Positions 1 through 17,177 of a DNA stretch of 64,000 nucleotides are shown here, one piece after another. The notes beneath the pieces were generated by a model. That model made no database searches. It was given only the letters and a program-made list of their open reading frames with translations, and was not told the DNA's origin. This DNA comes from Halovivax gelatinilyticus (GTDB taxonomy: Archaea > Halobacteriota > Halobacteria > Halobacteriales > Natrialbaceae). The stretch is from the NCBI RefSeq assembly GCF_024300625.1, contig NZ_CP101322.1:1191992-1255991 (forward strand), read 5' to 3'. Within the stretch, counting starts at the first letter, position 1. Each line of letters begins with the position of its first letter. Both the position numbers and the translations under genes were made by a program.

Positions 1-707
1 AAGTCGTCTGTGCGGTCCTCGTCACCGTCGATCGTCGCGAAGAACCGGTCGGCGTCGTGGACCGCGTACCGGCCAGTTTCGACCGTCTCCCACGCGACGG
101 GGTTCGAAAACGAGTCGTCGGCCAGGTAGTCGTCGGCGCGAGAGTGGCTCGACCGAGCCGCGCCGAGGCGCTCTTCCGCGTGGGCACCCTGGACGACGAC
201 TTGGGTGAGCGCCTCGCCGGCGTACCGGCGTTCGAAGGTCTCGAGTTCGTCGCCGAGGGACTCGTGGGCGGCTCGCAGTTCGTCGCTCGGGCGGCCGGAG
301 TCGGGTTCAAGATAGTGACCGCGGGCGGTGGCACTACTGGCGACCGAGAGCCGATAGGCGTTGAGCGCGTCGTGGCGTTCGTCGCCGTGGCCGATCTCTG
401 CGGGCGGATGTGCGTCGAGTCCAGCTCTCGCGTTCTCGAGGCGGTTGTATTCCGGGTCGTCAGACGTGCCGACGAGTTCGTCGGTCTCACTGACGTGGGC
501 TTTGGCCCACTCGTGGGCCGCTTCGAGGTGTGCGTCGGTGACCTCGACCGGATCGGCTATTGTCGGGACCGGGACGTCGAGGGCCGTCTCGATCGCGTTG
601 ACCTCGTCTCGTCGGCGGATCGCCCGACGATTCCAGTAGGCGACGCCGGTCCGACCGAGGACGGTGGCACCGAGGGCGGTGAGGAGGGTCCGTCTGCGGG
701 GACTCAT
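1..707 (-). CDS. Secreted or membrane-anchored haloarchaeal protein (3' end outside window)
   Basis: The frame opens at ATG (705-707) and stays open for 235 codons to the window edge, so the C-terminus is missing. The N-terminus MSPRRRTLLTALGATVLG is a basic patch followed by a short hydrophobic stretch, which fits a Tat-like signal or signal anchor. The remainder is soluble, acidic and rich in Ala, Glu, Asp and His, with probable long helices (around residues 60-200). I recognise no catalytic motif or family. The opposite strand is also open here, but only because GC-rich haloarchaeal DNA lacks stop codons; the signal-like N-terminus and acidic composition favour this strand. Function unknown; probably an exported helical protein. 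Confidence 0.7.
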   Translation of the reverse strand, partial: MSPRRRTLLTALGATVLGRTGVAYWNRRAIRRRDEVNAIETALDVPVPTIADPVEVTDAHLEAAHEWAKAHVSETDELVGTSDDPEYNRLENARAGLDAHPPAEIGHGDERHDALNAYRLSVASSATARGHYLEPDSGRPSDELRAAHESLGDELETFERRYAGEALTQVVVQGAHAEERLGAARSSHSRADDYLADDSFSNPVAWETVETGRYAVHDADRFFATIDGDEDRTDD

Positions 708-860
708 ATGTTAAATGGTCAAGGTAAGTCGCCATAAGTCTTCAGATTCGGAGAATGATCGAATCGGTTCGGGGGGTCGGTCGTCGAACGAAGACCGCTC
801 AACGATCGGCGGTTCCGAGCGGACGCCGCCCGGGACCTGCCGCGGGCTGGTCGACTCCGG

Positions 861-1307
861 TCAGACCTCGTCAGGGTACGCCGCCACGCCGAGCTGGACC
901 ATCATCTCCATCGAGTCGCTCAACAGCCACTCCTCGGCGACGCGATCGTCTTCTAACCGCATCAGGCTCATCACCGGGACGTCGATCGACTCTCCGGTCG
1001 GTTCGATGCCCATGAACTCGCCGTCGTGCGTGCCGCTGATGGTGAGGTGAGTCAGGAGTAACTCGTCGTCGGCCACGGTTCGTTCGATGTCGATCTCGAA
1101 GTCCGGGAACGCCGAGCGCAACTCGCGAACCCGCTCTTTGTACGCCTCCGGGCCGTGGATGTCCGGAAGCGATTCCGGCGTGTGCCGGACGAAGTCGTGT
1201 GCGAACCGGTCGTCGATCGCGTCGACGTCGCCGTCGTTCCACACGCGTTCTGCGAGCGAAGACATCTCGTCTTTCAGCTGATCTGTCTCTCGTCGTGACT
1301 GGGCCAT
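861..1307 (-). CDS. SnoaL-like / ester cyclase family protein (NTF2 fold)
   Basis: A 148-aa protein beginning MAQSRRETDQL. The pattern of a helix (AERVWNDGDVDAIDD), then FVRHTP, a YKERVRELRSAFPDFEIDIE segment, LTISGTHDGEFMGIEPTG and a closing strand with EEW is typical of SnoaL-like polyketide cyclase or ester cyclase proteins, single-domain alpha+beta barrels of about 130-150 aa. The substrate cannot be read from sequence, and many members are uncharacterised. I chose the ATG at 1307 because the 43 codons upstream in frame are unlike the family. It is a lone gene with no obvious operon partner. Cytoplasmic; no signal peptide. Confidence 0.8.
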   Translation of the reverse strand: MAQSRRETDQLKDEMSSLAERVWNDGDVDAIDDRFAHDFVRHTPESLPDIHGPEAYKERVRELRSAFPDFEIDIERTVADDELLLTHLTISGTHDGEFMGIEPTGESIDVPVMSLMRLEDDRVAEEWLLSDSMEMMVQLGVAAYPDEV

Positions 1308-1510
1308 TAGTACACACCCGAACGACCACATGCTATTGTGTGACATACAACGATCCCAGGCGTGCGCTACGGCGGATGCGCAGACGTTCCGACGCAACGG
1401 AGGACGATCCACCTCGGCGGGTCCGTCGAGACCCAACGGACGAGTTCCCTACGAACGGTCCGGAGGCACACACCGGATCGGCGTCACCGTGAGCGCAACG
1501 ATCGATCGGC

Positions 1511-1990
1511 TCAGACCGCCCCGGTGCGTGCCAGCATCCACCGATGGCCGGCGTAGACGGTCGCGACGAACAACGTGGCGACGAACGCGACCAGCCAGGC
1601 GAGCGCGGCGTAGCCGACGACGGCGTGCTCGTACGGACCGACGACGTCCGCAGGGGGTTCGACGGCCACCGGCCCGAAGTGGGCCAGGGTGACGACGGCG
1701 AAGATAGCGCCGAAGAGTATCGTCCAGTAGCCCGCACCGACCCGACCGGAACGCGTCAGATAGAGCCCGACCGCGACGAGCGGGTAGATCGCGAGCGTGT
1801 AGGTGAAGGGTGTGATCTCCGGAGTTATCGGCCAGCCGACGTGGTTTCCGCGGATCACGTGATCGACGTGATGTCCGATCCCGAACGACGTAGCCACGGC
1901 CAACAATGCGTAGAGGCGGGCGTCAACGCTGTCGGATCCCCGCCGCTCGAACGAGCGCGACGGCCACCCCTCGGAGAGGCTCTCGATCAT
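1511..1990 (-). CDS. Four-helix membrane protein with His-rich first loop
   Basis: A 159-aa integral membrane protein with about four hydrophobic helices (near residues 25-42, 62-78, 85-105 and 125-150). Between the first two lies a His-rich segment, GHHVDHVIRGNHVGWP, which could bind a metal or cofactor or simply face the membrane surface. I do not recognise a named family. The start lies 37 bp downstream of a perfect 12-bp palindrome, and the same 14-bp sequence recurs upstream of the adjacent HTH-10 regulator gene. That suggests the regulator controls this gene. The regulator's stop is only 64 bp upstream of this start and both genes are on the minus strand. Confidence 0.75.
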   Translation of the reverse strand: MIESLSEGWPSRSFERRGSDSVDARLYALLAVATSFGIGHHVDHVIRGNHVGWPITPEITPFTYTLAIYPLVAVGLYLTRSGRVGAGYWTILFGAIFAVVTLAHFGPVAVEPPADVVGPYEHAVVGYAALAWLVAFVATLFVATVYAGHRWMLARTGAV

Positions 1991-2025
1991 ACCGGTACTG
2001 ATCGAGCGAGCGCAGAGAGAGTTTG

Positions 2026-2039
2026 GCCAACATGTTGGG
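2026..2039. promoter_or_regulatory. Putative operator GCCAACATGTTGGG (copy 1)
   Basis: The core CCAACATGTTGG (2027-2038) is a perfect 12-bp palindrome, 37-48 bp upstream of the membrane-protein start at 1990. The identical 14-bp sequence occurs again at 2783-2796 upstream of the HTH-10 regulator. The spacing suits an activator-type site just upstream of a TATA element. The symmetry resembles the ACC...GG upstream element bound by Bat at the bop promoter of Halobacterium, but that is an analogy only. Confidence 0.6.
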
Positions 2040-2053
2040 GTGGCATCGGTTCG

Positions 2054-2704
2054 TCACCGACCCCGCGGGGAGATTGGCTCCGGTCCCGTCAGGAACCACT
2101 CCAGAATCGTCGCCTCGCCGCGGCGAAGAATTGTGCTCGCCGAGGACTTGTCGATACCGACCGAATCGGCGAGTTCTGCGAGCGTACACTCTCGCGGGAC
2201 CTCGTAGTAACCCGCACGAAGTGCGGCCGCTAAGAGCTCGCGCTGCCGATCGGTGACCAGCGTCTCGTCGGCAGCCGCGTGGACGATCGAGCCGAGTTCG
2301 TAGGCGACGGGAGCGGCCTCCAGGGTTTCGTCTAACTGCTCGAACTCCGCTCGCGTCCCGGTCAGGTCGAACGCGAACCAGCCGGCCTGGGCGACGACCG
2401 GGAACTCGATCGGGAGCGAGGAGGACTCGACGAACGCGTAGAGGTCCGTATCGACCGCCTCGTACTTAGCGAGGGCGCGACCGTCGGTCGATTCGAGGAG
2501 TTCGTACTGCGAGATCGATGGATGGGATCGCATGGCCGCGACGATCTCGCCCGGCTCGTCGGCGACGACCTCGCCGAGTTCGAGCGCCGCCTCGTCGACG
2601 CGATAGCCGGCCAGGAGCCTGAACCGGGCGTCGGGGAATCGGTCCGAAAGCTCCCGCACCCACACCCCGTCGGGTAGTCGAATTCGAAAGCGAGCGCGGA
2701 TCAC
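2054..2704 (-). CDS. HTH-10 (Bat-type) transcriptional regulator
   Basis: A 216-aa protein with GTG start. Residues 1-145 form an alpha/beta sensory-like domain without recognisable ligand residues. Residues 150-205 (TDRQRELLAAALRAGYYEVPRE then LAELADSVGIDKSSASTILRR) match the HTH-10 domain of the bacterio-opsin activator (Bat) family, which is abundant in haloarchaea and usually acts as transcriptional activator or repressor. Its own upstream region and that of the next gene downstream (four-helix membrane protein) carry the same 14-bp palindromic site, consistent with autoregulation plus control of the membrane protein. The ligand or signal is unknown. Family assignment is confident; target assignment is inference. 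Confidence 0.88.
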   Translation of the reverse strand: MIRARFRIRLPDGVWVRELSDRFPDARFRLLAGYRVDEAALELGEVVADEPGEIVAAMRSHPSISQYELLESTDGRALAKYEAVDTDLYAFVESSSLPIEFPVVAQAGWFAFDLTGTRAEFEQLDETLEAAPVAYELGSIVHAAADETLVTDRQRELLAAALRAGYYEVPRECTLAELADSVGIDKSSASTILRRGEATILEWFLTGPEPISPRGR

Positions 2705-2782
2705 GGCGACCCCTCCGACCGGCGCTTGACGTCACCGGGACCGGGTTGATCGGTGATCGAACGCGAGCCGGATCGGGCCGAA

Positions 2783-2796
2783 GCCAACATGTTGGG
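2783..2796. promoter_or_regulatory. Putative operator GCCAACATGTTGGG (copy 2)
   Basis: A second exact copy of the 14-bp palindromic sequence, 80-91 bp upstream (core) of the GTG start of the HTH-10 regulator. Two perfect copies about 760 bp apart, each upstream of one gene of a regulator/membrane-protein pair, are unlikely by chance. The rest of the 2705-2999 gap holds no convincing gene. Confidence 0.6.
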
Positions 2797-2999
2797 AAGT
2801 CACGTGGAAGCAGTCGCTCCACGGCTTAAATCACCGTGATCGAGTCGACAAACGGATCGGATCGCGGTGGGCGGATCGACGGCGGTAGAGAGAGGTGTGC
2901 GAAGGCGACCAGGAGACTGGACCATCGACGAGACGGAATCGATCGGCGAGGGGAAAGACGATCATATCGGGCGTGTTCTGGCGGTCGAGACATTTCCCC

Positions 3000-3470
3000 T
3001 CAACAGTCCTGTTCGATCCATCGATCCGCAGCGACGTCGGCGACCGGCTCCTCGGAGGCCGGATCCGACTCCAGTTCGGCCCGGTAGACGCCGTCTTCGG
3101 TGAGGAGGTACGCCGCGTAGACCGGCGGGTCGTGTGCGACGTCGTCGTCCATCTCGTAGGTCGCCTCGCCCACGGTGTCGACCCGGACGGAGCCGTCGTC
3201 TCGGTCGAAATTCCTGGTGACGGCGTTCACGCTGGCGCCGTCGTCGGCCGATTCACGGATCGCCTCGCGTTCGAGCGCTTCGACCGCCACGGTGATCGCA
3301 TCCTCGTCTGCCCCGTCGATCGCGTCCAGCGAGAGATCAAACTCGTCCGTGGGACACGGCACCGAAGGTGCGTCGGTCGGGTTCGGATCGTCGGTAGTTC
3401 GATCGGCCAGGCAGCCGGCGAGGGCGGCCGGTACCAGCGCGATCGAGGCGAGGAGGGCGCGTCGATGCAT
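3000..3470 (-). CDS. Small haloarchaeal lipoprotein
   Basis: A 156-aa secreted protein. The N-terminus MHRRALLASIALVPAALAGC has a basic start, a hydrophobic core and a lipobox (LAGC, Cys20), so the mature protein is probably lipid-anchored outside the membrane. The mature part is acidic, beginning with a Asp/Pro-rich linker (DRTTDDPNPTDAPS) and followed by a small alpha+beta domain around residues 45-150 with a YAAYLLTEDGVYRAELES strand pair. I recognise no enzymatic motif. It is monocistronic as far as can be seen. Function unknown; extracytoplasmic binding or structural roles are possible. Confidence 0.78.
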   Translation of the reverse strand: MHRRALLASIALVPAALAGCLADRTTDDPNPTDAPSVPCPTDEFDLSLDAIDGADEDAITVAVEALEREAIRESADDGASVNAVTRNFDRDDGSVRVDTVGEATYEMDDDVAHDPPVYAAYLLTEDGVYRAELESDPASEEPVADVAADRWIEQDC

Positions 3471-3575
3471 GCGCGAGCGTTATGGCGGTCCGATAGGTGT
3501 TTTCGGGAGACCGATCGCGGGAACGGGTCCACACGGACCGGGTGAGGCGGAAACGGTTCGTCGGCCCGACCGGCC

Positions 3576-3709
3576 GACCCACCCGGGTTCTATACTGCCC
3601 CTCGTGGTAGGGCCGGCGCGAGTGGGCGCACCGCTCGAACGGGGTGAGAGATGACTGTCATCGCACGATTCGAGGTCATCCCCGTTCGCGACGGGAGCCC
3701 CGCCGAGAG
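3576..3709 (+). repeat. Left copy of a ~135-bp direct repeat flanking the toxin-antitoxin module
   Basis: This stretch repeats 4659-4798, including the upstream sequence, the GGTGAGAG element just before the start and the first 19 codons of the thiamine-binding-family gene. In the coding part 54 of 57 bases are identical; the upstream part has several substitutions and one small indel. The two copies lie in the same orientation and bracket the winged-helix/PemK gene pair. Confidence 0.85.
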
Positions 3710-3737
3710 ACGGTCGACAGCACTCGTCCGGCGATAA
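3651..3737 (+). pseudogene. 5' fragment of an MTH1187-family thiamine-binding gene
   Basis: Starts with ATG and reads MTVIARFEVIPVRDGSPAE, nearly the same as the intact gene at 4740-5051 (MTVIARFEVIPVRDGSLAE), then diverges after about 19 codons and stops at a TAA (3735-3737). Only the first fifth of the family's usual ~100 residues remains. It is the left arm of the direct repeat that brackets the toxin-antitoxin pair, so it most likely arose when the module entered or when the locus was duplicated. Confidence 0.8.
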
Positions 3738-3750
3738 TACGTCAAATACT

Positions 3751-3778
3751 TAAAATATATCAGTACACTCAATAGTGT
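3751..3778 (+). promoter_or_regulatory. TATA box and inverted-repeat operator of the winged-helix/PemK operon
   Basis: TAAAATATAT (3751-3760) is a strong archaeal TATA-like element 38-47 bp upstream of the ATG at 3798. Just downstream, over the expected transcription start, is the inverted repeat ACACT-CAAT-AGTGT (3765-3778), flanked on both sides by CAGTAC-like sequence. Its position would let the first gene product repress the operon by blocking transcription initiation. Confidence 0.6.
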
Positions 3779-3797
3779 CAGTACCGTATACTCGTTC

Positions 3798-4175
3798 ATG
3801 TCGATCGATATCGAGCGGTTCGAGGAGGACGATCCAGACGCGTGGGAAGAGCCCACGAACGCCGAGCGGGTGCTGGCGTTCCTCGCCGATCACGACGACC
3901 GGGCCTGGAAAGCCGGTGAGATCGCCGATCGCACCGGTATCTCCCAAGGGTCGATTGGGCCGGTGCTGGTCAGACTCCGCGAGCAAGATCTCGTCCGCCA
4001 CCGGGGATCGTACTGGGCGATCACCGACGACCGGGAGCGACTTCACGACGCGACCGAACTGCACCGAATCACGGCGAGTCTCGACGAGCGGTTCGGGTCG
4101 GAAGATCGGAGCGAGTGGATCGCCCACGCGGCAGAATCAACCGACGAAGGTACCGCAGAACGAGACGAAGGATGA
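3798..4175 (+). CDS. Winged-helix (MarR-like) protein, likely antitoxin
   Basis: A 125-aa acidic protein. Residues about 22-80 form a winged helix (NAERVLAFLADHD, then KAGEIADRTGISQGSIGPVL as recognition region, then LVRHRGSYWAITDD as the wing); the C-terminal 45 residues are Glu/Asp-rich and probably flexible. The stop overlaps the start of a PemK/MazF-like toxin gene (ATGA), so the two are translationally coupled. This geometry, with DNA-binding protein first and RNase toxin second, is that of a type II toxin-antitoxin operon, but the antitoxin is a winged helix rather than the usual MazE/AbrB fold. The inverted repeat at 3765-3778 is a plausible autoregulatory site. The antitoxin role is inferred. 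Confidence 0.75.
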   Translation: MSIDIERFEEDDPDAWEEPTNAERVLAFLADHDDRAWKAGEIADRTGISQGSIGPVLVRLREQDLVRHRGSYWAITDDRERLHDATELHRITASLDERFGSEDRSEWIAHAAESTDEGTAERDEG

Positions 4176-4507
4176 CGTACGAGCGTGGTACGGTCATCTG
4201 GTGTCGTGATCCGTTCAAAACCGACCCGGACGCCGGTCGGCCGTGGGTTGTCGTAAACAATCGAACCCATCCGTTCGGCGACGAACAGTACATCACGGTA
4301 GCCCTCTCGACGAGCGGGCACGACGGAGCGATTCCACTGACGATGGACGACTGGATAGATGGCGAAACGCCGCGCCAAAGTTACATTCTTCCCTGGTCGA
4401 CTCACTCACCGAGGAGCCGTTACGTCGAGTTCAGACAGGGACGACTCACTAGTGACGTCGTGAACGCTGCGCTGGACGAACTATTCTCGTACGTCGACGC
4501 CGAGTAA
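4172..4507 (+). CDS. PemK/MazF-like toxin (mRNA interferase family)
   Basis: A 111-aa protein starting at the ATG that overlaps the upstream stop. The N-terminus MTYERGTVIWCRDPF, followed by GRPWVVVNNRTHPF, ITVALSTS and a mid-protein SYILPWSTHSPRSRYVE strand, follows the SH3-like barrel pattern of PemK/MazF/CcdB-fold toxins: a basic Arg-Gly start, an RPxVVVNN strand, and a conserved Ser/Thr region before a C-terminal helix. Family members cleave RNA or poison gyrase; which applies here cannot be read, though RNA cleavage is most common. The gene lies inside a direct-repeat-flanked segment, suggesting acquisition as a module. Confidence 0.75.
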   Translation: MTYERGTVIWCRDPFKTDPDAGRPWVVVNNRTHPFGDEQYITVALSTSGHDGAIPLTMDDWIDGETPRQSYILPWSTHSPRSRYVEFRQGRLTSDVVNAALDELFSYVDAE

Positions 4508-4658
4508 CGAAGAACAGCATCGCCCCTGGGACACGTACCGGTTCAGACAGTTCGACGGAATCGTCTCGGCGAAACGCTTCACTGGCGGACGTCCCTATCG
4601 ACACCTCGGCCGAATTCGCGTTCGGTTCGACCGCAGGTATCCACCGGGTCAACTGCAC

Positions 4659-4798
4659 GACCACCCGGGTACTATGACGATCCTCGTAGTAGGGCTGGTG
4701 CGAGTGGGTGGCCGAACCACCGCTCGAACAGGGTGAGAGATGACTGTCATCGCACGATTCGAGGTCATCCCGGTACGCGACGGGAGCCTCGCCGAGGA
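4659..4798 (+). repeat. Right copy of the direct repeat flanking the toxin-antitoxin module
   Basis: Pairs with 3576-3709. It contains the upstream region and first 19 codons of the intact thiamine-binding gene. The unrepeated interior between the copies (about 3710-4658) holds exactly the two-gene winged-helix/PemK operon and roughly 150 bp after it in which I see nothing. Confidence 0.85.
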
Positions 4799-5051
4799 GA
4801 TCGCACGGGCCGTAGACGCGCTCGAGGAGTTCGGCGTGTCGTACGAACTGACCGCGACGGACACGGTGGTCGAAGCCGACCACGTGGACGAGGTGTTCGA
4901 CGCCGTCAAGGCGGCCCACGACGCGGTCGACGGCGACCGCGTGATCACCTCGCTCGAGGTCGACGAGCACCGGAGCCGGGAGCAGGACGCCGAAGATCGC
5001 GTCGAATCCGTCGCGAGCGTGCTCGGACGCGAACCGAAGCGAACGGCGTAG
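4740..5051 (+). CDS. MTH1187-family thiamine-binding protein
   Basis: A 103-aa protein beginning MTVIARFEVIPVRDGSLAEEIA, with the EFGVSYELTATDTVVEADHVDEVFDAVKAAHDAV core of the MTH1187/YkoF (formerly UPF0045) family. Members are small ferredoxin-like alpha/beta proteins that assemble as tetramers; the YkoF branch binds thiamine or its pyrimidine precursor. Length and spacing match the family well. A short Arg/Glu-rich tail follows the fold. A nearly identical 5' fragment lies 1.09 kb upstream. Cytoplasmic. Ligand identity is inferred from the family. Confidence 0.88.
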   Translation: MTVIARFEVIPVRDGSLAEEIARAVDALEEFGVSYELTATDTVVEADHVDEVFDAVKAAHDAVDGDRVITSLEVDEHRSREQDAEDRVESVASVLGREPKRTA

Positions 5052-5214
5052 ATATCCGGTCGTGAACACGGGCAGGTGAGTCGGTCGACCGATCGGCGCT
5101 CCACGCCCGTGAAGTGTGCTTTGATAACATGGCGGTCGTTCTGACGCTCCGGCTTTTCTGTCATTTGAGTTAAGTTTATCTCAGCTGGGAGCCTCTGTAG
5201 TGGTGTGAATTGAC

Positions 5215-6108
5215 ATGCCAACTACTGTCGATGACTCCACCTTCGGAGAGCAGTCACGCGAACGCGACGGGGCGAGCCGGTTCGGACGAGTTCGTAAGGG
5301 GCGATCGGTTCGCTCACTCGTCCGGCTGGGGGCGTTTTCCCTCTCGCTGGCGCTCGCCGCGCTGATGACGGTCGCGTTCCTGCCGGATCTGCTGGCGCTT
5401 CTCGCCCTCGGCTGGACGGGCGAGGTCGGCGCGGAACTCGGCATCCACCGACTGCACGTGATGGGAATCGCCGCGGTCGTCGGCGCGTTCTTGCTCGGAC
5501 TGTTCAGCCAGGCCTACCGCCCGAGAAAGCGGATCGCGGCCATGTGGGGTGCGTTCGGAACCATCCTCGTCGTCAGCGTCGGCACGCTCGCCTACGGCGT
5601 CGGGCGACCGGAGGAGGTCCTCCCGTTCCTGGCGGTGACGAGCGTCGCGCTCGTCGCCCACCCGGCGGGGCGGGGACTGCTTCGCCGTGGCTCGAGTTAC
5701 AGCCCGGCTATGCTGGCACTGGTCGCCGTCGCCGCCGTGCCGCTCGCCGCGTTCGCGCTATCGCAGTGGAGCCTCTCGACCAGCGCGACGGACCCGCACG
5801 CCCTCGACGGCCACTACGTGATGATGGCCGGGCTCGTCCTCGCGCCGCTCGCCTACGGGACGGTCGCCGCGCTCGGCTTCGTCGGGTGGCGTCTGGCCGC
5901 GTGGATCGCCGCGCTTCCGATCGCCTACTACGGTCTGCTCTCTGCGGCGTTCACGACGCAGTCGGGTTCGACCGGCGTCGCCTGGGGCGGCGCGGCCGTG
6001 GTCTGGGCGATCGCGTTCGTCGCCGTCGCCGAGTACTCGCGCACTAACGACGCCTCGATCCTGCGCAGACCGATCGGTCGGACGGACGAATCGTCCAGGT
6101 CCGCCTGA
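5215..6108 (+). CDS. Multi-pass haloarchaeal membrane protein
   Basis: A 297-aa integral membrane protein with a 35-residue charged N-terminal cytoplasmic segment and about eight hydrophobic helices (first near residues 36-65, last near 262-280). Motifs include GIHRLHVMGIAAVVGAFLLGLFSQAYRP in the second helix region and an LDGHYVMMAGLVLAPLAYGTVAALGF stretch, where conserved His residues could be functional. I cannot name the family. A TATA-like AAGTTTATC (5173-5181) lies about 35 bp before the ATG. After the stop, a T-rich stretch (CGTTTTATTTC, 6144-6154) may end transcription, since the next gene converges. Confidence 0.8.
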   Translation: MPTTVDDSTFGEQSRERDGASRFGRVRKGRSVRSLVRLGAFSLSLALAALMTVAFLPDLLALLALGWTGEVGAELGIHRLHVMGIAAVVGAFLLGLFSQAYRPRKRIAAMWGAFGTILVVSVGTLAYGVGRPEEVLPFLAVTSVALVAHPAGRGLLRRGSSYSPAMLALVAVAAVPLAAFALSQWSLSTSATDPHALDGHYVMMAGLVLAPLAYGTVAALGFVGWRLAAWIAALPIAYYGLLSAAFTTQSGSTGVAWGGAAVVWAIAFVAVAEYSRTNDASILRRPIGRTDESSRSA

Positions 6109-6160
6109 TCGAATCGGTATTCGGACCCGGGCGATCCGACCTACGTTTTATTTCTCGAAC

Positions 6161-7447
6161 TTATCCGCGCCGTTCGACCCGCAGCGGTTGTCTCTCGCGA
6201 TAGGTGAGCACGCGCCAGAGCCACTCGATCGGGCCGTACCGGAAGTAGTGCAGCCAGAGAACCGACAGCGGGATCTGAATCGCCCAGATAACCACGACGA
6301 TCCCGAGCGCTTCGACGCGCGTCACGTGGCCGAACAGCCCGAGGCCGTGGCCGTAGAAGATCGACGTCGCGAGGACCGTCTGCAGGATGTAATTGCTGAA
6401 GGCGGTCCGACCCACCGCCGCGAGCCCCGTCGACACCATCCCGGTCGGTCGCCAGCGACAAAAGCGCATCACGAGGCCGACGTACGCGACGGCGAGCGCG
6501 ATCGATCCCCAGTAATTGAACTGCCGGTAAAAGAGTGCGGCTTCGACCCCCCAGTCAGCCGACTCGACGTACCAGACGCCGGCAAGGATAACCGCAATTC
6601 CGCCCGCGCCGCCGACGGCGATCAGCCGACCGTACTCGCGAGTGGTACGCTCGTTCGTCAGGACGCCCCACTTGAACAGCGCCATGCCGAGTAGCATCAG
6701 CCCGCCGACCCGCCAGGCCGTGTAGCCGAGAAAGCCGGACGTCTGTCGGCCGAACGCAGCCGGTATTCGGTGAGAGAATTGATCGACGTAGCTCCCGCGG
6801 TAGGCCGCGAATTCGGCCTCGATCGACGCGGTCGACGGCTCCCACGTGCTCGCGACGATGGCCGGATCGGCGAACAGCCCCGCGAGCGCCTCGATCACCG
6901 ACGGAACCGCCAGGAAGAGCACGCCGACGGTCGCGAGGACGCGCGCCGTCAGGTCCTTCAGGAGGACGACGAAGAGCCCGCATAGCGCGTAGGCGACGAG
7001 GATGTCGCCGTACCACAGCAGGTAGGCGTGGGCCAGGCCGAACGCGAGCAACCAGCCGATCCGCCAGAAGTAGAGATCGAACGGCTCCCGGCCGCCGCGG
7101 TCGGCTCGTCGCGTAAACAAAATCACGCCGCCGCCGAACAGGATGGTAAACAGCGCGATGAACGTCCCCTCGGCGAAGACGTGACCGACGAACCACGCCC
7201 AGTAGTTCGCGCCCGAAAAGTCGCCGTAGATCGTCGGGTTCGCGAGCACCCGCTCGGGCATCGAGAACACCCGAATGTTGATCACCAGAATGCCGAGCAA
7301 TGCGAACCCGCGCAACGCGTCGAGCGCGACGATCCGCTCGGATGGCGGCGTGGGACCGTCCGACCGGTCGGGGTTAGACCCCGCTCGAGATTCCTCCTGA
7401 CCCGCCGATTCGTCGGCCCCCGCGGCGCCCGGGCGGTCGTCGCTCAT
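6161..7447 (-). CDS. DUF418 (YeiB-type) membrane protein
   Basis: A 428-aa protein with an acidic 35-residue N-terminal tail and about ten transmembrane helices. The first helix signature RIVALDALRGFALLGILVINI and the C-terminal segment GRTAFSNYILQTVLATSIFYGHGLGLFG ... PLSVLWLHYFRYGPIEWLWRVLTY are hallmarks of YeiB/DUF418 proteins, relatives of acyltransferase-3 (heparan-alpha-glucosaminide N-acetyltransferase) membrane enzymes. Function of DUF418 is poorly known; membrane acyl transfer is one idea. Convergent with the gene ending at 6108 and downstream of the subtilase gene on the same strand, but separated by a terminator-like region. Confidence 0.9.
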   Translation of the reverse strand: MSDDRPGAAGADESAGQEESRAGSNPDRSDGPTPPSERIVALDALRGFALLGILVINIRVFSMPERVLANPTIYGDFSGANYWAWFVGHVFAEGTFIALFTILFGGGVILFTRRADRGGREPFDLYFWRIGWLLAFGLAHAYLLWYGDILVAYALCGLFVVLLKDLTARVLATVGVLFLAVPSVIEALAGLFADPAIVASTWEPSTASIEAEFAAYRGSYVDQFSHRIPAAFGRQTSGFLGYTAWRVGGLMLLGMALFKWGVLTNERTTREYGRLIAVGGAGGIAVILAGVWYVESADWGVEAALFYRQFNYWGSIALAVAYVGLVMRFCRWRPTGMVSTGLAAVGRTAFSNYILQTVLATSIFYGHGLGLFGHVTRVEALGIVVVIWAIQIPLSVLWLHYFRYGPIEWLWRVLTYRERQPLRVERRG

Positions 7448-7523
7448 CGATCACCGCGTCGGTGAGTCGGACAGCCCGGTTCGAAAACGATCATCGCGTA
7501 CTGCGTTCGTCGAGCGGTCGGTA

Positions 7524-7600
7524 CAAAAAATGAGGTGAACGGCGGTCGGCCGGCAGTGGCGCGGCGGTCGGCCGGCAGTGGCGGAACCGGTGTGCGCCGG
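7524..7600 (-). terminator. Terminator region of the subtilase gene with a duplicated 22-bp unit
   Basis: Reading on the minus strand after the protease stop, a CCGGCGCACACCGG hairpin and two copies of a 22-bp GC-rich unit (7541-7560 and 7563-7582 share GGCGGTCGGCCGGCAGTGGC) lead into CATTTTTTGTAC (7521-7532). A T-run after GC-rich sequence is what archaeal intrinsic termination needs. The tandem duplication itself is probably replication slippage. Confidence 0.55.
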
Positions 7601-7622
7601 TCCCGTCCGAAACCGCCCGCGT

Positions 7623-10433
7623 TTAGTCGTCGCTCGTTCCGACGACGGGGCCGGCAGGGACGCCCTCTGACGGACGTCCACGACCTGATTCGAGGTAGAA
7701 TTCCGGTGACTCCCAAGTGTCCCAGTGGTCGGGATTTTCGGGATCGCCGAGTGTCCGAAGGGCCTCGACGACGAGCGTGTATCGACCCGGCGGGACCGGG
7801 CGGCGGTTGTCACTCCCGCCCGACGGGGTCCGTCCGTCCCAGGCGAACGCGTAGTAGGTCTCCGGGTCTGGACTTCGAGAAACGTACGCCGATTCCATCG
7901 CGAGCCACTCCCGACCGCTCTGCTGGTGGACGGCAGTGACGCGGAACGTCCGCGGGAAGTGACCGAAGAACGCCTCGACGACCGGGAGATCGTCGTCGCC
8001 CGGCGTGAACGCGTGGCCCGGATCGACCGGTTCGTAGCCGACCGGTTCACCGTCTTCGAAGACGATCGACGCGAGGTGGGGTTCCTGCTCGACGAACTCG
8101 GTGGCGTCGGCGTAGTAGCCGAACAGGGGCAGGTCCTGGTAGTCGCCCTCGTAGCCCGAGTAGGGTACGTGGAGCGTGTCGTGGGACTCGTCGGTCGGTT
8201 CCAGCACGACGTAGCCGCCGTACTGGTGGTTTGGCCACCCGAACGCCGGCGCGTGGATGGAGACGTCGACGTCGGCGGAGTCACCGGCTGGAACCGTGAC
8301 GGTCGCGGGTGCGTCGATGACGCTACCAGGGCCGAGGAACGCCGGCGCAAACGTGTTTGCGGCCGTCCCCAGCGTCCCGACGTTGCCGATCGCGTATTCG
8401 ACGTCCGCGTCGCCGTCGTTCGTGAGTGTGAGCGTGGTGTCGGTCCCGTCCCCGTCTCCGAGCGAGAGCTGACCCGGCGTCACTCGCCCGTCGGCCTGGA
8501 TCGCCGCGTCCACCTGTACCATCCCCGCCCCCTGTCGGAACGAGTGATCGAGGAGACCGGCGCCTGGATTCAACGACCAGGCCATCGGCTCGGCCGTGTT
8601 CTGCAGTCGATCGCGCACGTCGAACGGATCGAGATCCGGTTCGGCTTCCAGTAACAGCGTGACCGCCCCGGCCACGTGCGGTGCGCTCATGGACGTCCCC
8701 GAGAGCATGGCGTACTCGCCCAGATCGAGCGGGTAGGTCGACGTGATGAGTCCACCCGGTGCGGTGACGCTCGGGCCGAAGGCCAGTTCGACGTCCTGCC
8801 CGTAGGAGGTGAAATCCGAGAGCAGCCCGCCGGTCGGATTCGGAACGGTGACTTGCTCGTCCGTAAATTCGAGCGTGACCTCCTCGCCCTCATCGAGCAG
8901 GTCGACGAGGGCGGCGCCGCCGGCGTCGCTGATGCCGGCGCCCCAGACGCCCTCGACGCCGGCGTCCGCGATCGTTCCGCTGAACAGACCGGCGACGTTG
9001 TTGTAGATGACGACGCCGGTCGCCCCCGCGTCGACGGCGTTCAGGTACTTGTCCGCGAACGCGCAGTGACCGCGCTCGATCAGCGCGACGTGTCCCTCGG
9101 GGAAGTCCGCGAAGTCCTCGGCGTCGCAGCCGAAGTAGCCGACCTCTCCGTCGATCTCGCTCTCGGCCGGCAGGGCGAGCGGGTCCGACTCGCCCTCGGT
9201 CGGCGGCAGCTCCGCCCCGCTGAGTTCCAGATACGGGACCGGGTCTTCGAGCTGTTCTACCTCGAATGCGAGCGCTTCGAGGTGCGTGTTGTCCGCGCTG
9301 GCGACGCTGATGATGTCGTGGGCGTTCGCCGGCGCGCTCATGCTCCAGGCGCCGAGTCCCCCGTCGTTCCCGGCCGAGTTGACCACGACGACGCCCTGGT
9401 CTGCGAGTTCGTTACTCGCCGCCGTCGTCGGGTACGCCTGGCCCCAGGCCAGGGTCGCACCGAGCGACATGTTCACGACGTCCATTCCGTCCTCGTAGGC
9501 GTCCTCCAGTGCCTCGACGATGATCTCGGCCGTGCTCGATCCGACGTCGAAGATCTTGTACGCACCGAGGGTGGTCTCAGGGGCGACGCCGGTCACGCCG
9601 CCGTCGTCGGCCGCGTCGGCCCCGACGATACCGCCGACGTGCGTGCCGTGGCCCTGCGGGTCCATCGGATCGGGATTCGGATCCGGTTCGTCCGCGTCAG
9701 GATCGCCAGCATCGTATCCCGCGCCGACGTAATCCCAGCCGTGGCTGATGCGCGAGTGGGGCTCCCCGTCGGCGTCGGTAAGCGTCCGGTCTGCGGCCGA
9801 GATCGCCGTGTAGACGTCGTCCGGATCGCCGCTGCCGCCGAGGTCGGGGTGATTGTAGTCGATCCCCGTGTCGATCACCGCGACGGCGTAGCCCGCGCCG
9901 GTGTAGCCGAGTTCGGACCGAGCCGCGTCCGCCCCGGTCATCGACAGGGCCGTCTCGAGCGCCGGCGAGGCCTCGTCGGGCTCGGGGTGGTCGACGATCG
10001 CAACCGGGTAGACCGCGTCGACGCTATCGAGCGCAGAAAGCGCGACGGCCTCGCCGAATCCCGCCTCGACCGTGAGGCCGTTCCACAGCGTCGAAAAGTC
10101 CCGCCGCTGTGCGAACCGAACGCCCTCCGCCCGCGCCTCGCTCCGGAAATCGGCACGCTCCGTGGCGTGGGTGCTCGCCGCGACGCCGCGAGCCCGCGGG
10201 GCCGCCTCGAACGCGACGAACCAGCGATCCCTGACGAACCGATCGGGTGTCCCCTCTACGGTCTCCCACGGCGGCGGACTCTCCGGATCGAGGGGCGCGG
10301 GATCCGACGAGTCGCCTCCGGCGGTAGCCATCCCCGAAAGGACCGCCCCCAGTCCCGCCACGCTCGCGAGCTTCAGCGTCGTTCGTCTGTCGAGTCGATA
10401 CGTGCCGTCCTCCGCTGTGTCGTGATCGCTCAT
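7623..10433 (-). CDS. Tat-exported subtilisin-like S8 serine protease with PA domain
   Basis: A 936-aa extracellular protease. A Tat signal (RRTTLKL, residues 16-22) is followed by an I9-type inhibitory propeptide (about 65-150). The S8 catalytic domain carries Asp188 (AVIDTG), His262 (GHGTHVGG), oxyanion Asn356 (SAGND) and Ser581 (SGTSMSAPHVAG). A PA domain is inserted before the Ser (about 390-525; FPEGHVALIERGHCAFADK), as in lactocepin or C5a-peptidase type subtilases, and Fn3/beta-sandwich segments follow to the C-terminus. I chose the ATG at 10433; an in-frame ATG at 10568 adds 45 residues that would bury the Tat motif. A TATA-like CTTATACA near 10585 would suit a short leader. Likely halolysin-like nutrient or maturation protease. 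Confidence 0.93.
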   Translation of the reverse strand: MSDHDTAEDGTYRLDRRTTLKLASVAGLGAVLSGMATAGGDSSDPAPLDPESPPPWETVEGTPDRFVRDRWFVAFEAAPRARGVAASTHATERADFRSEARAEGVRFAQRRDFSTLWNGLTVEAGFGEAVALSALDSVDAVYPVAIVDHPEPDEASPALETALSMTGADAARSELGYTGAGYAVAVIDTGIDYNHPDLGGSGDPDDVYTAISAADRTLTDADGEPHSRISHGWDYVGAGYDAGDPDADEPDPNPDPMDPQGHGTHVGGIVGADAADDGGVTGVAPETTLGAYKIFDVGSSTAEIIVEALEDAYEDGMDVVNMSLGATLAWGQAYPTTAASNELADQGVVVVNSAGNDGGLGAWSMSAPANAHDIISVASADNTHLEALAFEVEQLEDPVPYLELSGAELPPTEGESDPLALPAESEIDGEVGYFGCDAEDFADFPEGHVALIERGHCAFADKYLNAVDAGATGVVIYNNVAGLFSGTIADAGVEGVWGAGISDAGGAALVDLLDEGEEVTLEFTDEQVTVPNPTGGLLSDFTSYGQDVELAFGPSVTAPGGLITSTYPLDLGEYAMLSGTSMSAPHVAGAVTLLLEAEPDLDPFDVRDRLQNTAEPMAWSLNPGAGLLDHSFRQGAGMVQVDAAIQADGRVTPGQLSLGDGDGTDTTLTLTNDGDADVEYAIGNVGTLGTAANTFAPAFLGPGSVIDAPATVTVPAGDSADVDVSIHAPAFGWPNHQYGGYVVLEPTDESHDTLHVPYSGYEGDYQDLPLFGYYADATEFVEQEPHLASIVFEDGEPVGYEPVDPGHAFTPGDDDLPVVEAFFGHFPRTFRVTAVHQQSGREWLAMESAYVSRSPDPETYYAFAWDGRTPSGGSDNRRPVPPGRYTLVVEALRTLGDPENPDHWDTWESPEFYLESGRGRPSEGVPAGPVVGTSDD

Positions 10434-10657
10434 ATCTCTCTGGTTGTGCGTCGCCAGCGCCGGGCCGATCGGTCCGCCACGGCACTCGGTCGGATTCGGC
10501 GCCGAGTAGATTCGTCCGGAATCTGGTACGTTCGGCCGGCGGGAGTTACCGCCCGGCGTGACACTCATTGGTGTCCATAATCGTGTATAAGAATGTATGG
10601 TTATTCCTCAAGGAAATGATGAATTTCCCGGATACTCTGGTCTTCCGCTCGAAGGAT

Positions 10658-11521
10658 CTAAACCGAAAGGAACGATCGGATCGAGTCGGCCACCCGTTTC
10701 TGCCCGCGCTTTGAGAGTACGTGTTTCTCGCCCGGGAGGATCCCGACCCGGTCTGCCGATTCGAGTCGGTCCGATGCACGCGGCTCGATCACGTCGGGCG
10801 GAAAGAACGGATCCTCCTCGCCGAGGGACAGCGCCACCGGCGCGTCGAAGTCGGCTAGCTCGTCCGCGCTCGCCGTCGGGAACTCGCGTTCGAGTTCGAC
10901 GTGTCGAAGCGAGGCGGCGACTGTCTCGCGGACGACCGGGTCGGCGTCGGGATCGGTGACGATCGAGGCGAGCACTCGATCGAGTAGCCGGTCGCTGGGG
11001 ACGTATCGATACGCGATCGAGCAGAGCCCGATTTTCGCCATGGTCGAGATCGAGCCCGTGCCGAATCCGGCTGGAACGACGAGGCCGGCGCGGTCGATCC
11101 GGTCGGGCGCGCGGGCGGCCGTCCGGAGGACGATCCCGGCCCCGTAGGAGGTGCCGATCATCGGAGCGGACGCCAGCTCGAACGCGTCGAGGAGGTCGAC
11201 GACCCACGCGCCGTAGCCCTCGCCCCGCGGATCCGGCCGCGTCTCGGCGCTGTAGCCCGGTTGGCCGATCGTATCCGGGGCGATCAGTCGGTACTCGTCG
11301 GCCAGATCGGCGTACCACGACAGCGTCATCGGGTTGGTGGCGTTCCCGCCGTGAAAGACGATCACCGGCTGCCCGTCCGTCGGCCCGGCACAGAGGACGT
11401 GCGTCTCGCCGGCCCACGTGTCGACGAATCGCTCCGTGACGTCGACGTCGAGACGGGCCAGAGCGTCCTCGTAACACGCCTCGAGAACGCGTCGTCCCGC
11501 AGCGGACCGGTAGACGGACAT
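10658..11521 (-). CDS. Alpha/beta-hydrolase
   Basis: A 287-aa cytoplasmic alpha/beta-hydrolase. The oxyanion-hole motif HGGNATNP (57-64), nucleophile elbow GTSYGAG (Ser125), an acid in the SLGEEDPFFPP strand, and late His267 (PGEKHVLSK) form the expected catalytic set. The TIGQPGYSAETRPDPRGEGYGAWVVDLLDAF segment is typical of the lipase/esterase or dienelactone branch, with a small cap around residues 155-215. Substrate cannot be assigned. The gene lies between the subtilase and a lipoprotein gene, all on the minus strand, but spacing of 220 bp and 82 bp does not prove co-transcription. Confidence 0.9.
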   Translation of the reverse strand: MSVYRSAAGRRVLEACYEDALARLDVDVTERFVDTWAGETHVLCAGPTDGQPVIVFHGGNATNPMTLSWYADLADEYRLIAPDTIGQPGYSAETRPDPRGEGYGAWVVDLLDAFELASAPMIGTSYGAGIVLRTAARAPDRIDRAGLVVPAGFGTGSISTMAKIGLCSIAYRYVPSDRLLDRVLASIVTDPDADPVVRETVAASLRHVELEREFPTASADELADFDAPVALSLGEEDPFFPPDVIEPRASDRLESADRVGILPGEKHVLSKRGQKRVADSIRSFLSV

Positions 11522-11603
11522 CGTGCGTACGTGTTCGGACGAGCGAAAAAGCGATTGCGGTGCGCGATACCGACGGTGGGCCGGCCCGTTCGAAACCGGC
11601 GTC

Positions 11604-12086
11604 TCAGTGTTCTGGGAACGGCTCCGGCGATAACGCCTCCACCTCGCCGTCGATCTCGTCGTAGAGGAGCCATCGGTCGCCGTGTCGGCAGAATTCGAAC
11701 TGGACTTCGGATTGATACCTGGGTTGATCGGGGTGTGTTACTCGAATTAGCGCGCTCGCCTGCGTTCGATCCTCATCGTCAAGGATCTCTTCGTGGAGGC
11801 CCGATTCGATCACGTGAGAGTCCTCCCCGGGATCATCCCACTCTGAAGTGATCGCGGTGACCCGTTGTTCGTCGTAGAGTGTTAGATCGTTCACGTCGAA
11901 ATCGACCGGTGAGTCCGGGTGGAGGTGCGTACTCGCTTCGTCGAGATCGACGGCATCGAGTGCCCTGAAGAATTCTTTGAGGGCATCCGGTGGATCGGGT
12001 GGGTCATCTTCAAAGGAGTCGGTACAGCCTGCGACACCGAGGGTGAAGGCGGACACCGCGATCAGTTCGTATTCACGCCTCCTCAT
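11604..12086 (-). CDS. Lipoprotein, copy A of a tandem pair
   Basis: A 160-aa lipoprotein with signal and lipobox MRRREYELIAVSAFTLGVAGC. The mature part starts with a short acidic/proline linker (FEDDPPDPPD), then a helical segment ALKEFFRALDAVDLDEASTHLHPDSPV resembling NTF2/DUF4878-type domains (small alpha+beta barrels of lipoproteins), and ends VQFEFCRHGDRWLLYDEIDGEVEALSPEPFPEH. It is clearly paralogous to the sequence directly upstream (12073-12552), which carries an internal stop; the reading frame upstream of 12086 in this frame is only that neighbour's shadow. Function unknown; extracytoplasmic. Confidence 0.82.
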   Translation of the reverse strand: MRRREYELIAVSAFTLGVAGCTDSFEDDPPDPPDALKEFFRALDAVDLDEASTHLHPDSPVDFDVNDLTLYDEQRVTAITSEWDDPGEDSHVIESGLHEEILDDEDRTQASALIRVTHPDQPRYQSEVQFEFCRHGDRWLLYDEIDGEVEALSPEPFPEH

Positions 12087-12552
12087 CGGTACCCTCTGCA
12101 TCAGGAAACGGCTCGGAAGTGAATGCCTCAACGTTGCCCCCGACCTCATCATAGACGAACCAATCCTCGTCGGACCGACGTTATTCGAACGTACCCGAAT
12201 GAGTAAACCGCGGCGAATCGATCGCAAAACCGATGCTGAACCACTTTCGAGAGTTATCCGCCCGAACCTCTTCAGTAACGTTTCCACCGTGTTCCGGATC
12301 GACGTGAGTCACGCTGGAGGGGCGAATATCCCCATTTTCGTACACGTCCAGATTGACCGAAGCGAGATCGACCGGCGACCCGGAATGCAGAAGCTCCTCG
12401 GCGGTATCAAGATCGCCGTCGAAGAGGGCTTCGAAGAACTCTCTGAGGACGTCTGGCGGGTCGGATGGATCGTCTTCGAAGTAGCTGGAACAGCCAGCGA
12501 AGCCGATAGCTCCTACTGACACCCCGATCGTACAAAAATTTCGTCTGTTCAT
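12073..12552 (-). pseudogene. Lipoprotein, copy B, interrupted by an in-frame TAA
   Basis: Begins MNRRNFCTIGVSVGAIGFAGC (signal and lipobox) and continues FEDDPSDPPDVLREFFEALFDGDLDTAEELLHSGSPVD, colinear with copy A. After codon 123 (HSGTFE) there is a TAA at 12181-12183, but the frame stays open beyond it and encodes DEDWFVYDEVGGNVEAFTSEP, matching copy A's HGDRWLLYDEIDGEVEALSPEP with no gap. Full length would be 159 codons against copy A's 160. So it is a nonsense-interrupted gene, or a truncated 123-aa protein if the C-terminal strand is dispensable. The full frame overlaps the start of copy A by 14 nt. A TATA-like AAATAATAAATAG lies near 12585-12597. Confidence 0.75.
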
Positions 12553-12597
12553 TTGGGAGGGTCTTGCTGACTACTATGGGCAATGTCTATTTATTAT

Positions 12598-13686
12598 TTA
12601 CCCAACGTGTTTATCGTCCCAAAAATCGTCCGGGAGCGGACCGGTCAACGACATTTCGACCGGGTACTGATAGTGGAAGTCGTGATCGTCCAATTGCGCG
12701 ATTGCTTCCGTATCCAGGTCGAACCGTTCAGGGTGTGCGTTGACGGTAGCTCCGGCGTAGGCGGTCAATCCCTCGTGGATTTCTGGGAACTCGATCCCTC
12801 GAATTCCGGCATGCAGCAGCCGATCTGAACTCACACGGGCTTCGATTCGCTCGCGGAACGAGCCGGCGTTCGCGGGCATGATGAGCTCGAACGTTCCACC
12901 CATGTGCAGCGCCCCTGGTTTACCTATCAGGTCGACCACGTCGCCGACGTTGATTTCGAGCGTTTCGTTGGGTTCGAGATTTACCTCGTATTTCGTCCAC
13001 CAACTGGTCTGTTTCCGCCCGTCCCAGTCCCAGTCGCGTTCGTACGTCTCCGGTCGATCAAAGTAGTCGTCGTACAGCCATCCGAGCGCTTCGAAAATCG
13101 TCTCGGCCGCCGCGACGTACTTGTCGGCGCCCATCTGACTCAAGCCGAAATCGATGACGTAGTCGCTGACGTTGTTTCCTTCGCCGTCGTCGTACTCGTC
13201 GTGGTAACCACCGATCCAGTCGGAATTAGGCGCTGCGTGGATGAGTCCTTCTTGCGGTCCAGCCGCAGAACTATCGTCCCAGGAGATCGCGTGTCCGGAG
13301 CGCTCTACGTTGGATAACAGTACGCCGGTGTCGGTGTGGGTTATTGCGTTCCCGTTGATTTGAAGTGATATCCGGTCCCAAGGCTGATCTGACACCGGGT
13401 TTGCTTTGAACTGGACGACCGCCATGGAGGCATAGCCTTCTACACTCCCGCCGTAATTATCGGTCGCTTCGTCGCTGAACTCCCAGGTCCGGTTAATGTC
13501 ACCGCCTCCGCCGCCCGGTGGCGGATCGAACGGATTCCGGTCGTCCGTCCCTGCGTCGTCATCGTCTCTAGCCGAAACCGTCTGTGAGAGCAGACCCGCA
13601 CTCACGCCCGTTATCGCCGCAGTTTGGAGGAACTGCCGACGCGGGCGGCTCGGTCGTCGTCGGTCGTATGGGTTGTCATTTCCCAT
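12598..13686 (-). CDS. Tat-exported protein of unknown function
   Basis: A 362-aa secreted protein. The signal contains RRQFLQTAAITGVSAGLLSQTVSA with a twin Arg; the preceding PYDRRRPSRP is unusually basic. A low-complexity linker (DDDDAGTDDRNPFDPPPGGGGG) leads to a soluble domain rich in Trp, Tyr and Asp (about 75-362) containing AAETIFEALGWLYDDYFDRPETYERDWDWDGRKQ and LEPNETLEINVGDVVDLIGKPGALHMGGTFELI. No lipobox, so it is probably released or surface-associated. I do not recognise a family. It starts at ATG 13686 behind an AT-rich region (TTATATTC, near 13725-13740) that can serve as promoter. Confidence 0.75.
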   Translation of the reverse strand: MGNDNPYDRRRPSRPRRQFLQTAAITGVSAGLLSQTVSARDDDDAGTDDRNPFDPPPGGGGGDINRTWEFSDEATDNYGGSVEGYASMAVVQFKANPVSDQPWDRISLQINGNAITHTDTGVLLSNVERSGHAISWDDSSAAGPQEGLIHAAPNSDWIGGYHDEYDDGEGNNVSDYVIDFGLSQMGADKYVAAAETIFEALGWLYDDYFDRPETYERDWDWDGRKQTSWWTKYEVNLEPNETLEINVGDVVDLIGKPGALHMGGTFELIMPANAGSFRERIEARVSSDRLLHAGIRGIEFPEIHEGLTAYAGATVNAHPERFDLDTEAIAQLDDHDFHYQYPVEMSLTGPLPDDFWDDKHVG

Positions 13687-14204
13687 GAGACAGACATTCA
13701 CAACCAGCGTCACAAGTGTTTGTAAAATGAATATAATTAACTGTATAGGGGAATAGAGAACATTAAATTAGAATGTCTTGAGTCATTTCTTCGAAAGTGG
13801 TGGTCATTCAGCTGTTCGTTTTGGATATCGCCATTCAGTTTTCCCCATGGGTCGCCCCACGACTCGGCATCGAACCGGCGATCGACGGCCGGATCCCCGC
13901 TCGTCAACTCGGCACGAGAAGGCCCTCTCTCCACTCCCGTACCCTACCAAAGTCGAACTCGAACGCGGCAACGGGCACCCGAGTAGTCATCTGCAAGCAC
14001 TTGGAGTGCAGTTGGCCGATCACGCCGGAGTCCCGGCGTCGAGCACCACGCTCTTCGTTCGGTCACGGACGAACGAAGTAGACACGTACTGGGTGTAGTT
14101 CGAAGGGCGGGCGACTATCCTATCTAATGGAACGACCAGAGGACCGAACACTCCACCCCGCTGATCCGCGAGACACCGATGCTTCGAGCCACCGGACCCG
14201 CGAG
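13687..14204. other. 518-bp gene-free stretch with a 9-bp-stem hairpin
   Basis: The first 60 bp are AT-rich and hold the promoter of the Tat protein gene. Further on, CTTCGTTCG (14053-14061) and CGAACGAAG (14070-14078) form a perfect 9-bp stem with an 8-nt loop, and CTGCA/TGCAG (13991-14011) can form a smaller one. A 65-codon minus-strand frame at 13737-13934 has no recognisable features. No other gene is visible. Confidence 0.5.
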
Positions 14205-14798: not shown

Positions 14799-14866
14799 GT
14801 CGAGGAGTACGTGGCTATCTGACAAGAATGTTCGCGGTGAGGGCCGACGATGCAGTTCGGGCGGGA

Positions 14867-16720: not shown

Positions 16721-16727
16721 ACGCAGT

Positions 16728-17144: not shown

Positions 17145-17177
17145 ACGGTATCCGTCTCGACCGAGTATGGAGCACCG

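What the first reader, a model, noticed from the sequence alone, without database searches (positions are those of the whole stretch)
3576..4798. A two-gene winged-helix/PemK operon bracketed by 135-bp direct repeats of a neighbouring gene's 5' end
Seen: 3576-3709 and 4659-4798 are near-identical (54 of 57 coding bases), and contain the start of a thiamine-binding-family gene, intact only on the right. The segment between them holds a winged-helix gene, a PemK/MazF-like gene (ATGA overlap), a TATA box and an inverted repeat. Established: PemK/MazF toxins usually pair with MazE/AbrB- or RHH-type antitoxins. Inferred: a toxin-antitoxin type with a winged-helix antitoxin, moved as a cassette that left a broken gene fragment.
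Basis: partly seen in the sequence, partly recalled or inferred. Interest (0 to 1): 0.78.

Follow-up and report, generated by a model that had tools for sequence, protein, structure and literature searches.

The report
Winged-helix antitoxin paired with MazF toxin
A salt-loving archaeon carries a two-gene toxin-antitoxin switch whose protective partner looks like an ordinary gene regulator; the same pair, under a shared comb of short DNA repeats, turns up across most salt-loving archaea, which suggests a widespread but so far unnamed variety of a classic bacterial system.

Summary
The repeats are real: 3576-3709 and 4659-4798 are 85% identical (54/57 in the coding part) and are the only two copies in this Halovivax chromosome. 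"Near-identical" holds only for the coding part.

Between them lies a winged-helix (wHTH) gene overlapping a PemK/MazF gene by ATGA. The toxin model is a clear MazF fold (top 50 PDB entries all MazF/Kid, Z 10.5-12.6), with the Arg and Ser/Thr that align with B. subtilis MazF R25/T48. In 125 genomes of the family, 89 of the 90 best toxin matches have this wHTH family immediately upstream. Of 62 pairs examined, 47 keep the 4-nt overlap. Both genes are under purifying selection. The wHTH ends in an acidic tail with an invariant Trp. I conclude, at genomic level only, a type II toxin-antitoxin system with a wHTH antitoxin. It is common in haloarchaea and on their plasmids and unnamed in the papers I could search.

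New finding: upstream of the wHTH gene lies a one-strand array of TAC[A/G] repeats every 8-9 bp (227 seen, 40 expected), probably the operator.

The "cassette that broke a gene" story is only partly supported: the site is a genus hotspot, but no clean empty site exists.

The parts
3576..3709 (+). Left repeat copy: promoter region plus first 19 codons of the thiamine-binding-protein gene, truncated (28-aa frame, then stop)
3738..3792 (+). Degenerate TAC-iteron array upstream of the wHTH gene: TAC at 3738, 3747, 3764, 3782, 3789 (-60, -51, -34, -16, -9 from the ATG); the -25 unit reads TAG. Probable operator
   Evidence: position-conserved TAC[AG] array in relatives
3747..3757 (+). TATA-like stretch TACTTAAAATA
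   Evidence: sequence
3765..3778 (.).
3798..4175 (+). wHTH gene, 125 aa: proposed antitoxin and autorepressor; wHTH core about residues 20-77, helix 79-99, acidic C-terminal tail with G-x-E-D-x-x-E-W motif (100-107)
4172..4507 (+). PemK/MazF-like gene, 111 aa: proposed toxin (endoribonuclease); ATGA overlap with the wHTH gene
4659..4798 (+). Right repeat copy: promoter and 5' end of the intact thiamine-binding-protein gene
4740..5051 (+). Intact thiamine-binding-protein gene (PF01910), 82% identical to its only close counterpart in the genus, in G031 (context, not part of the system)
5215..6108 (+). Context: uncharacterised membrane-protein-like gene whose homologue occupies the cassette position in G032 and of which a remnant lies beside the thiamine-binding gene in G031

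Best explanation
A two-gene type II toxin-antitoxin operon. The second gene makes a MazF-fold endoribonuclease (fold and aligned catalytic residues shown; RNA cleavage inferred). The first gene makes a winged-helix protein that is the antitoxin: its wHTH domain binds the operon's own promoter (inferred from a position-conserved, one-strand TAC[A/G] array across the promoter in relatives), and its flexible acidic C-terminal tail with an invariant Trp is proposed to bind and block the toxin dimer, as the unrelated MazE tail does (inferred). The 4-nt overlap would couple translation so that antitoxin is made first. The operon sits in a chromosomal hotspot and is exchanged among haloarchaeal chromosomes and plasmids. 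At this site it lies between a broken and an intact copy of the start of a thiamine-binding gene, most likely after recombination at that gene.
For: Pairing: 73 of 90 best toxin matches by coordinates, plus 9 and 7 found by reading the upstream DNA, 89 of 90 in all; two of those wHTH genes look frameshifted, and the single exception is an interrupted toxin copy downstream of a transposase-like frame. Overlap of 4 nt in 47 of 62 pairs; toxin and antitoxin distance matrices correlate at r = 0.89, highest of 2000 permutations 0.18. Fold: 50 best PDB entries all MazF/Kid, Z 10.5-12.6; profile matches B. subtilis, M. tuberculosis and S. aureus MazF by sequence; R23 98% conserved, position 46 always Ser or Thr, T47 97%. 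Selection: dN/dS about 0.13 (wHTH) and 0.16 (toxin) against the H. asiaticus pair. Antitoxin: wHTH pLDDT above 90, tail low confidence; G100 98%, W107 100%, mean net charge of residues after 90 is -8.9. Operator: 227 TAC[AG] in -70..-1 of 64 loci against 40 +/- 6 in shuffles and 42 on the other strand, modes at -42, -34, -25, -5; spaced pair in 49 of 64 loci, 0 of 31 control upstream regions. Mobility: 81 plasmid records, none in phages.
Against: No experiment. The window protein alone scores below the Pfam PemK cut-off. The AlphaFold model is moderate (mean pLDDT 75; four of five models were poor). The window's own operator array is degenerate. The distance correlation partly reflects shared ancestry. 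The TAC array could be a site for another protein.
Confidence: 0.74

Rival explanations
1. Regulator plus RNase, not addictive: the wHTH protein is a plain MarR-like repressor that controls a MazF-fold RNase used in housekeeping mRNA turnover, and it neutralises nothing by direct binding.
For: RefSeq calls the partner a MarR family transcriptional regulator; wHTH matches MarR_2 and IclR models; a conserved operator-like array exists.
Against: Patchy, multi-copy, plasmid-borne distribution; conserved acidic C-terminal motif outside the DNA-binding domain; intact toxin without wHTH partner not seen among the 90 best matches.
Confidence: 0.17
2. About the flanking repeats only: they arose from a tandem duplication of the thiamine-binding gene, or a single-crossover integration at it, and not from insertion of a mobile cassette with target duplication.
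For: The repeat spans a promoter plus gene start, is 135 nt long and has diverged to 85%; no terminal inverted repeats, no tRNA and no recombinase gene in the segment; left and right copies are closer to each other (54/57) than to G031 (47/57), so the duplication is younger than that split.
Against: The present data do not distinguish duplication followed by replacement from integration by homologous recombination.
Confidence: 0.6
3. The TAC[A/G] array acts in RNA, as cleavage or binding sites of the MazF toxin in the operon's leader, not as a DNA operator of the wHTH protein.
For: UACAU is the known target of B. subtilis and S. aureus MazF (PMC5408214); the array is strand-specific and confined to the upstream region (75 TACAT upstream, 2 in wHTH coding sequences).
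Against: In several relatives a TTTATA box lies inside the array, which would put most repeats upstream of the transcript start; the one characterised haloarchaeal MazF cuts UUACUCA, absent from these regions; the wHTH clade with Glu at residue 67 tends to have CAC or AAC in place of TAC, as expected for a DNA reader.
Confidence: 0.12

Closest known systems
MazEF / PemIK (Kis-Kid) type II toxin-antitoxin systems
   Same: Toxin fold, aligned catalytic Arg and Ser/Thr, antitoxin-first operon with short overlap, DNA-binding N-terminus and acidic disordered C-terminus of the antitoxin
   Different: Antitoxin DNA-binding domain is a MarR-like winged helix rather than AbrB/SpoVT, RHH or Phd; the candidate operator is a tandem one-strand array rather than the usual palindromes
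MazF-hw of Haloquadratum walsbyi (cuts UUACUCA; reviewed in PMC5408214)
   Same: Haloarchaeal MazF-family endoribonuclease
   Different: Its antitoxin and its relation to this family could not be checked here; the primary paper was not read
GNAT-wHTH (GacTA) of Geobacillus (PMC6929052), a predicted system
   Same: A wHTH protein proposed as antitoxin
   Different: Different toxin (acetyltransferase), antitoxin twice as long, opposite gene order
MarR family transcriptional regulators
   Same: Winged-helix domain; name given by RefSeq annotation
   Different: Regular toxin neighbour and conserved acidic C-terminal tail

Membership tests
PemK/MazF toxin superfamily | MazF fold | tested here: met
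   Foldseek prob 1.00; VIA-align Z 10.5-12.6 over 88-107 residues, all top 50 entries MazF/Kid
PemK/MazF toxin superfamily | Sequence profile match (PF02452) | tested here: inconclusive
   Window protein 17.3 bits, below the cut-off of 23.1; all 8 aligned relatives match, best E 1.3e-6
PemK/MazF toxin superfamily | Catalytic Arg and Thr (R25 and T48 in B. subtilis MazF; residue roles from memory) | tested here: met
   Profile alignment places R23 and S46 there; R 98%, Ser/Thr 100% in 62 pairs
PemK/MazF toxin superfamily | Sequence-specific endoribonuclease activity | not testable with these tools
   Needs protein
Type II toxin-antitoxin system | Small two-gene operon, antitoxin usually first, genes co-conserved | tested here: met
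   89 of 90 best matches paired; 47 of 62 overlap by 4 nt
Type II toxin-antitoxin system | Horizontal mobility, patchy and multi-copy distribution, plasmid carriage | tested here: met
   0-7 copies per genome, 81 plasmid records, presence or absence at one site between close relatives
Type II toxin-antitoxin system | Toxic second gene neutralised by direct protein binding | not testable with these tools
   Needs expression and binding assays
Type II toxin-antitoxin system | Autoregulation by the antitoxin at its own promoter | tested here: inconclusive
   Conserved repeat array across the promoter; binding not shown; degenerate in the window
MazE-type antitoxins (AbrB/SpoVT, RHH or Phd DNA-binding domain) | DNA-binding domain of one of these folds | tested here: not met
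   wHTH by Pfam and by model
MarR family | wHTH domain of MarR type | tested here: met
   MarR_2 matched by 9 of 9 members
MarR family | MarR-type dimer with N- and C-terminal dimerisation helices | tested here: inconclusive
   TM-score only about 0.44 to MarR chains, termini low confidence
Transposon or IS insertion | Transposase, terminal inverted repeats, short target duplication | tested here: not met
   None in 3576-4798; repeat is 135 nt and 85% identical

The most novel reading that the evidence does not exclude
A widespread haloarchaeal toxin-antitoxin family in which a MarR-like winged-helix protein replaced the usual MazE domain and reads a comb of head-to-tail TAC repeats every 8-9 bp across the promoter, an operator architecture unlike the palindromes of known type II systems, with half-site letter and DNA-reading residues changing together between clades.
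Probability: 0.5. Interest if true: 0.68.

Novelty: new variant of a known kind. Interest (0 to 1): 0.56.

Why it matters
MazF is one of the best-studied toxins, yet 2009 and 2016 surveys list its antitoxin partners and antitoxin DNA-binding folds without a winged helix (PMC2701414; PMC4803016). The toxin was found in 62 of about 81 haloarchaeal genomes in an even sample, while annotation names its partner only as a MarR regulator or helix-turn-helix protein. If confirmed, many such 'regulators' would be reclassified as antitoxins, haloarchaea would gain a common addiction and stress module that can be tested in Haloferax, and the tandem-repeat operator would offer a new mode of autoregulation to study.

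Tried and rejected
Phage carriage: no match in 50,697 phage records or in IMG/VR pattern scans. tRNA-linked integration: no tRNA in window 1-20000. Target-site duplication by a transposon: rejected as unlikely because of repeat length, divergence and absence of transposase. Clean empty site: not found; G031, G030 and G032 all differ in content at the site. The TAC array as a genome-wide motif: a strict 3-unit pattern gives 8 places in the own genome, 4 in the reversed control, none at the three known loci. Toxin target UACAU or UUACUCA in the wHTH coding sequence: no enrichment beyond a synonymous shuffle. PADLOC: no toxin match; only weak wHTH matches. NCBIfam: no model names the toxin. Literature: one hit for wHTH antitoxin phrases, on an acetyltransferase system.

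Full report
OBSERVATION. The complete 3.70-Mb chromosome holds only these two copies; the second matches at 85% over 136 nt, E = 5.9e-38. The coding part is 54/57 identical, the promoter part 81% over 48 nt. The right copy opens an intact 103-aa thiamine-binding protein (PF01910). The left copy keeps 19 codons and ends in a 28-aa frame. Between them are a 125-aa winged-helix gene and a 111-aa PemK-like gene with an ATGA overlap. The closest cassette (81% identical) lies on a contig of Halovivax asiaticus, which genome search shows as G029 in the same genus, so the window is from a Halovivax.

THE TOXIN. A single-sequence search gives only a sub-threshold Pfam match (17.3 against 23.1 bits), but all eight aligned relatives match PF02452, and the profile matches B. 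subtilis, M. tuberculosis and S. aureus MazF sequences (E = 0.005 to 0.12). The AlphaFold model (mean pLDDT 75) matches only MazF/Kid structures among the 50 best PDB entries, Z 10.5-12.6 over 88-107 residues (Foldseek probability 1.00). The profile alignment puts R23 on R25 and S46 on T48 of B. subtilis MazF (that these are catalytic is my recollection). In 62 pairs R23 is 98% conserved and position 46 is always Ser or Thr.

THE ANTITOXIN CANDIDATE. The wHTH core (about residues 20-77) is predicted with pLDDT above 90; a helix 79-99 and a low-confidence tail follow. Outside the DNA-binding domain, G100 (98%) and W107 (100%) with E102, D103 and E106 form a conserved motif in an acidic tail, mean net charge of residues after 90 being -8.9. 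MazE likewise combines a DNA-binding domain with a disordered C-terminal tail that wraps MazF (PMC4803016). The resemblance is of layout, not of sequence.

CO-CONSERVATION. Of the 90 best toxin matches in 125 genomes of the same family, 73 have a wHTH match immediately upstream by coordinates. Reading the upstream DNA of the other 17 shows a wHTH homologue in 9 and 7; two of the latter look frameshifted. The one exception (L114) is an interrupted toxin copy downstream of a transposase-like frame. The 4-nt overlap occurs in 47 of 62 pairs, and distances among toxins and among antitoxins correlate at r = 0.89. Against the H. asiaticus pair, dN/dS is about 0.13 (wHTH) and 0.16 (toxin), so both are maintained as proteins.

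DISTRIBUTION. In an even sample of the phylum the toxin profile hits 62 of about 81 genomes of the order. Outside it, two strong hits (G144, G154) and about 17 weak ones appear. Of those outside the order that I inspected, G154 has the wHTH partner, G144 shows none, and two weak hits have a different small partner. Plasmids: 81 records, the listed ones all haloarchaeal; RefSeq names the pair 'MarR family transcriptional regulator' or 'helix-turn-helix' plus 'PemK/MazF family toxin'. No phage or viral contig match.

THE PROMOTER ARRAY (new here). In 64 unique loci the 70 nt before the wHTH start codon hold 227 TAC[A/G] words, against 40 +/- 6 in shuffles and 42 on the other strand. They stand at preferred positions (-42, -34, -25, -5), 8 or 9 bp apart. 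Spaced pairs occur in 49 of 64 loci and in 0 of 31 control upstream regions. In one subgroup a TTTATA box lies inside the array. The simplest reading is an operator over the promoter, read by the wHTH protein. A clade with Glu instead of Arg at residue 67 tends to have CAC or AAC instead of TAC; this is one or two clades, so weak evidence. In the window the array is degenerate: TAC at 3738, 3747, 3764, 3782 and 3789, TAG at the -25 place.

THE SITE. Across five Halovivax genomes the DNA left of the DUF418 gene is a hotspot. H. asiaticus carries the pair between flanks 92-94% identical to G032, which has at that place a homologue of window gene 5215-6108. G031 has one intact thiamine-binding gene (82% identical), no pair, and a remnant of the 5215-type gene before it. 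The left and right repeat copies are closer to each other (54/57) than either is to G031 (47/57), so the duplication is younger than that split, barring gene conversion. A 135-nt, 85%-identical repeat covering a promoter and gene start is not a typical transposon target duplication. A single crossover between the chromosomal gene and an incoming piece carrying its start would give exactly one broken and one intact copy, but a tandem duplication fits too. Undecided.

KNOWN OR NEW. A 2009 survey lists AbrB, RHH, PHD and XF1863-type partners for MazF-family toxins (PMC2701414). A 2016 review of antitoxin DNA-binding domains does not mention winged helices and calls targets usually palindromic (PMC4803016). 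A later network survey gives no wHTH or MarR partner in its main text (PMC10440598). One haloarchaeal MazF is characterised biochemically (MazF-hw, UUACUCA; PMC5408214); I could not test whether it belongs to this family. Subscription papers, supplements and databases are not covered, so 'not described' is limited to what was searched. Verdict: new variant of a known kind, toxicity and neutralisation unproven.

Noticed in passing
upstream of wHTH genes, e.g. L016 1075-1144, L024 1059-1128, L046 4548-4617: One-strand TAC[A/G] array every 8-9 bp at preferred positions before the start codon, conserved across haloarchaeal families
   Followed up: yes
L052 6993-7717, L053 2647-3371, and G032 beside the same site: A DUF7387 plus PIN-domain pair (VapBC-like layout) sits at the same hotspot in three relatives (78-98% identical) but not in the window
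   Followed up: partly
L054 (G000:C1:1843000-1856500); L004, L005: A second site of the own genome holds two more wHTH-PemK pairs about 6 kb apart, one with a stop codon inside the toxin
   Followed up: no
L114: The only best-match toxin without a wHTH partner is itself interrupted and lies downstream of the end of a transposase-like frame
   Followed up: partly
G029:C14 about 104900-106950 (joined region 16899-18948) versus G032: Between 92-94% identical flanks the whole content is exchanged, not merely inserted, which suggests a gene-swapping hotspot next to the DUF418 gene
   Followed up: partly
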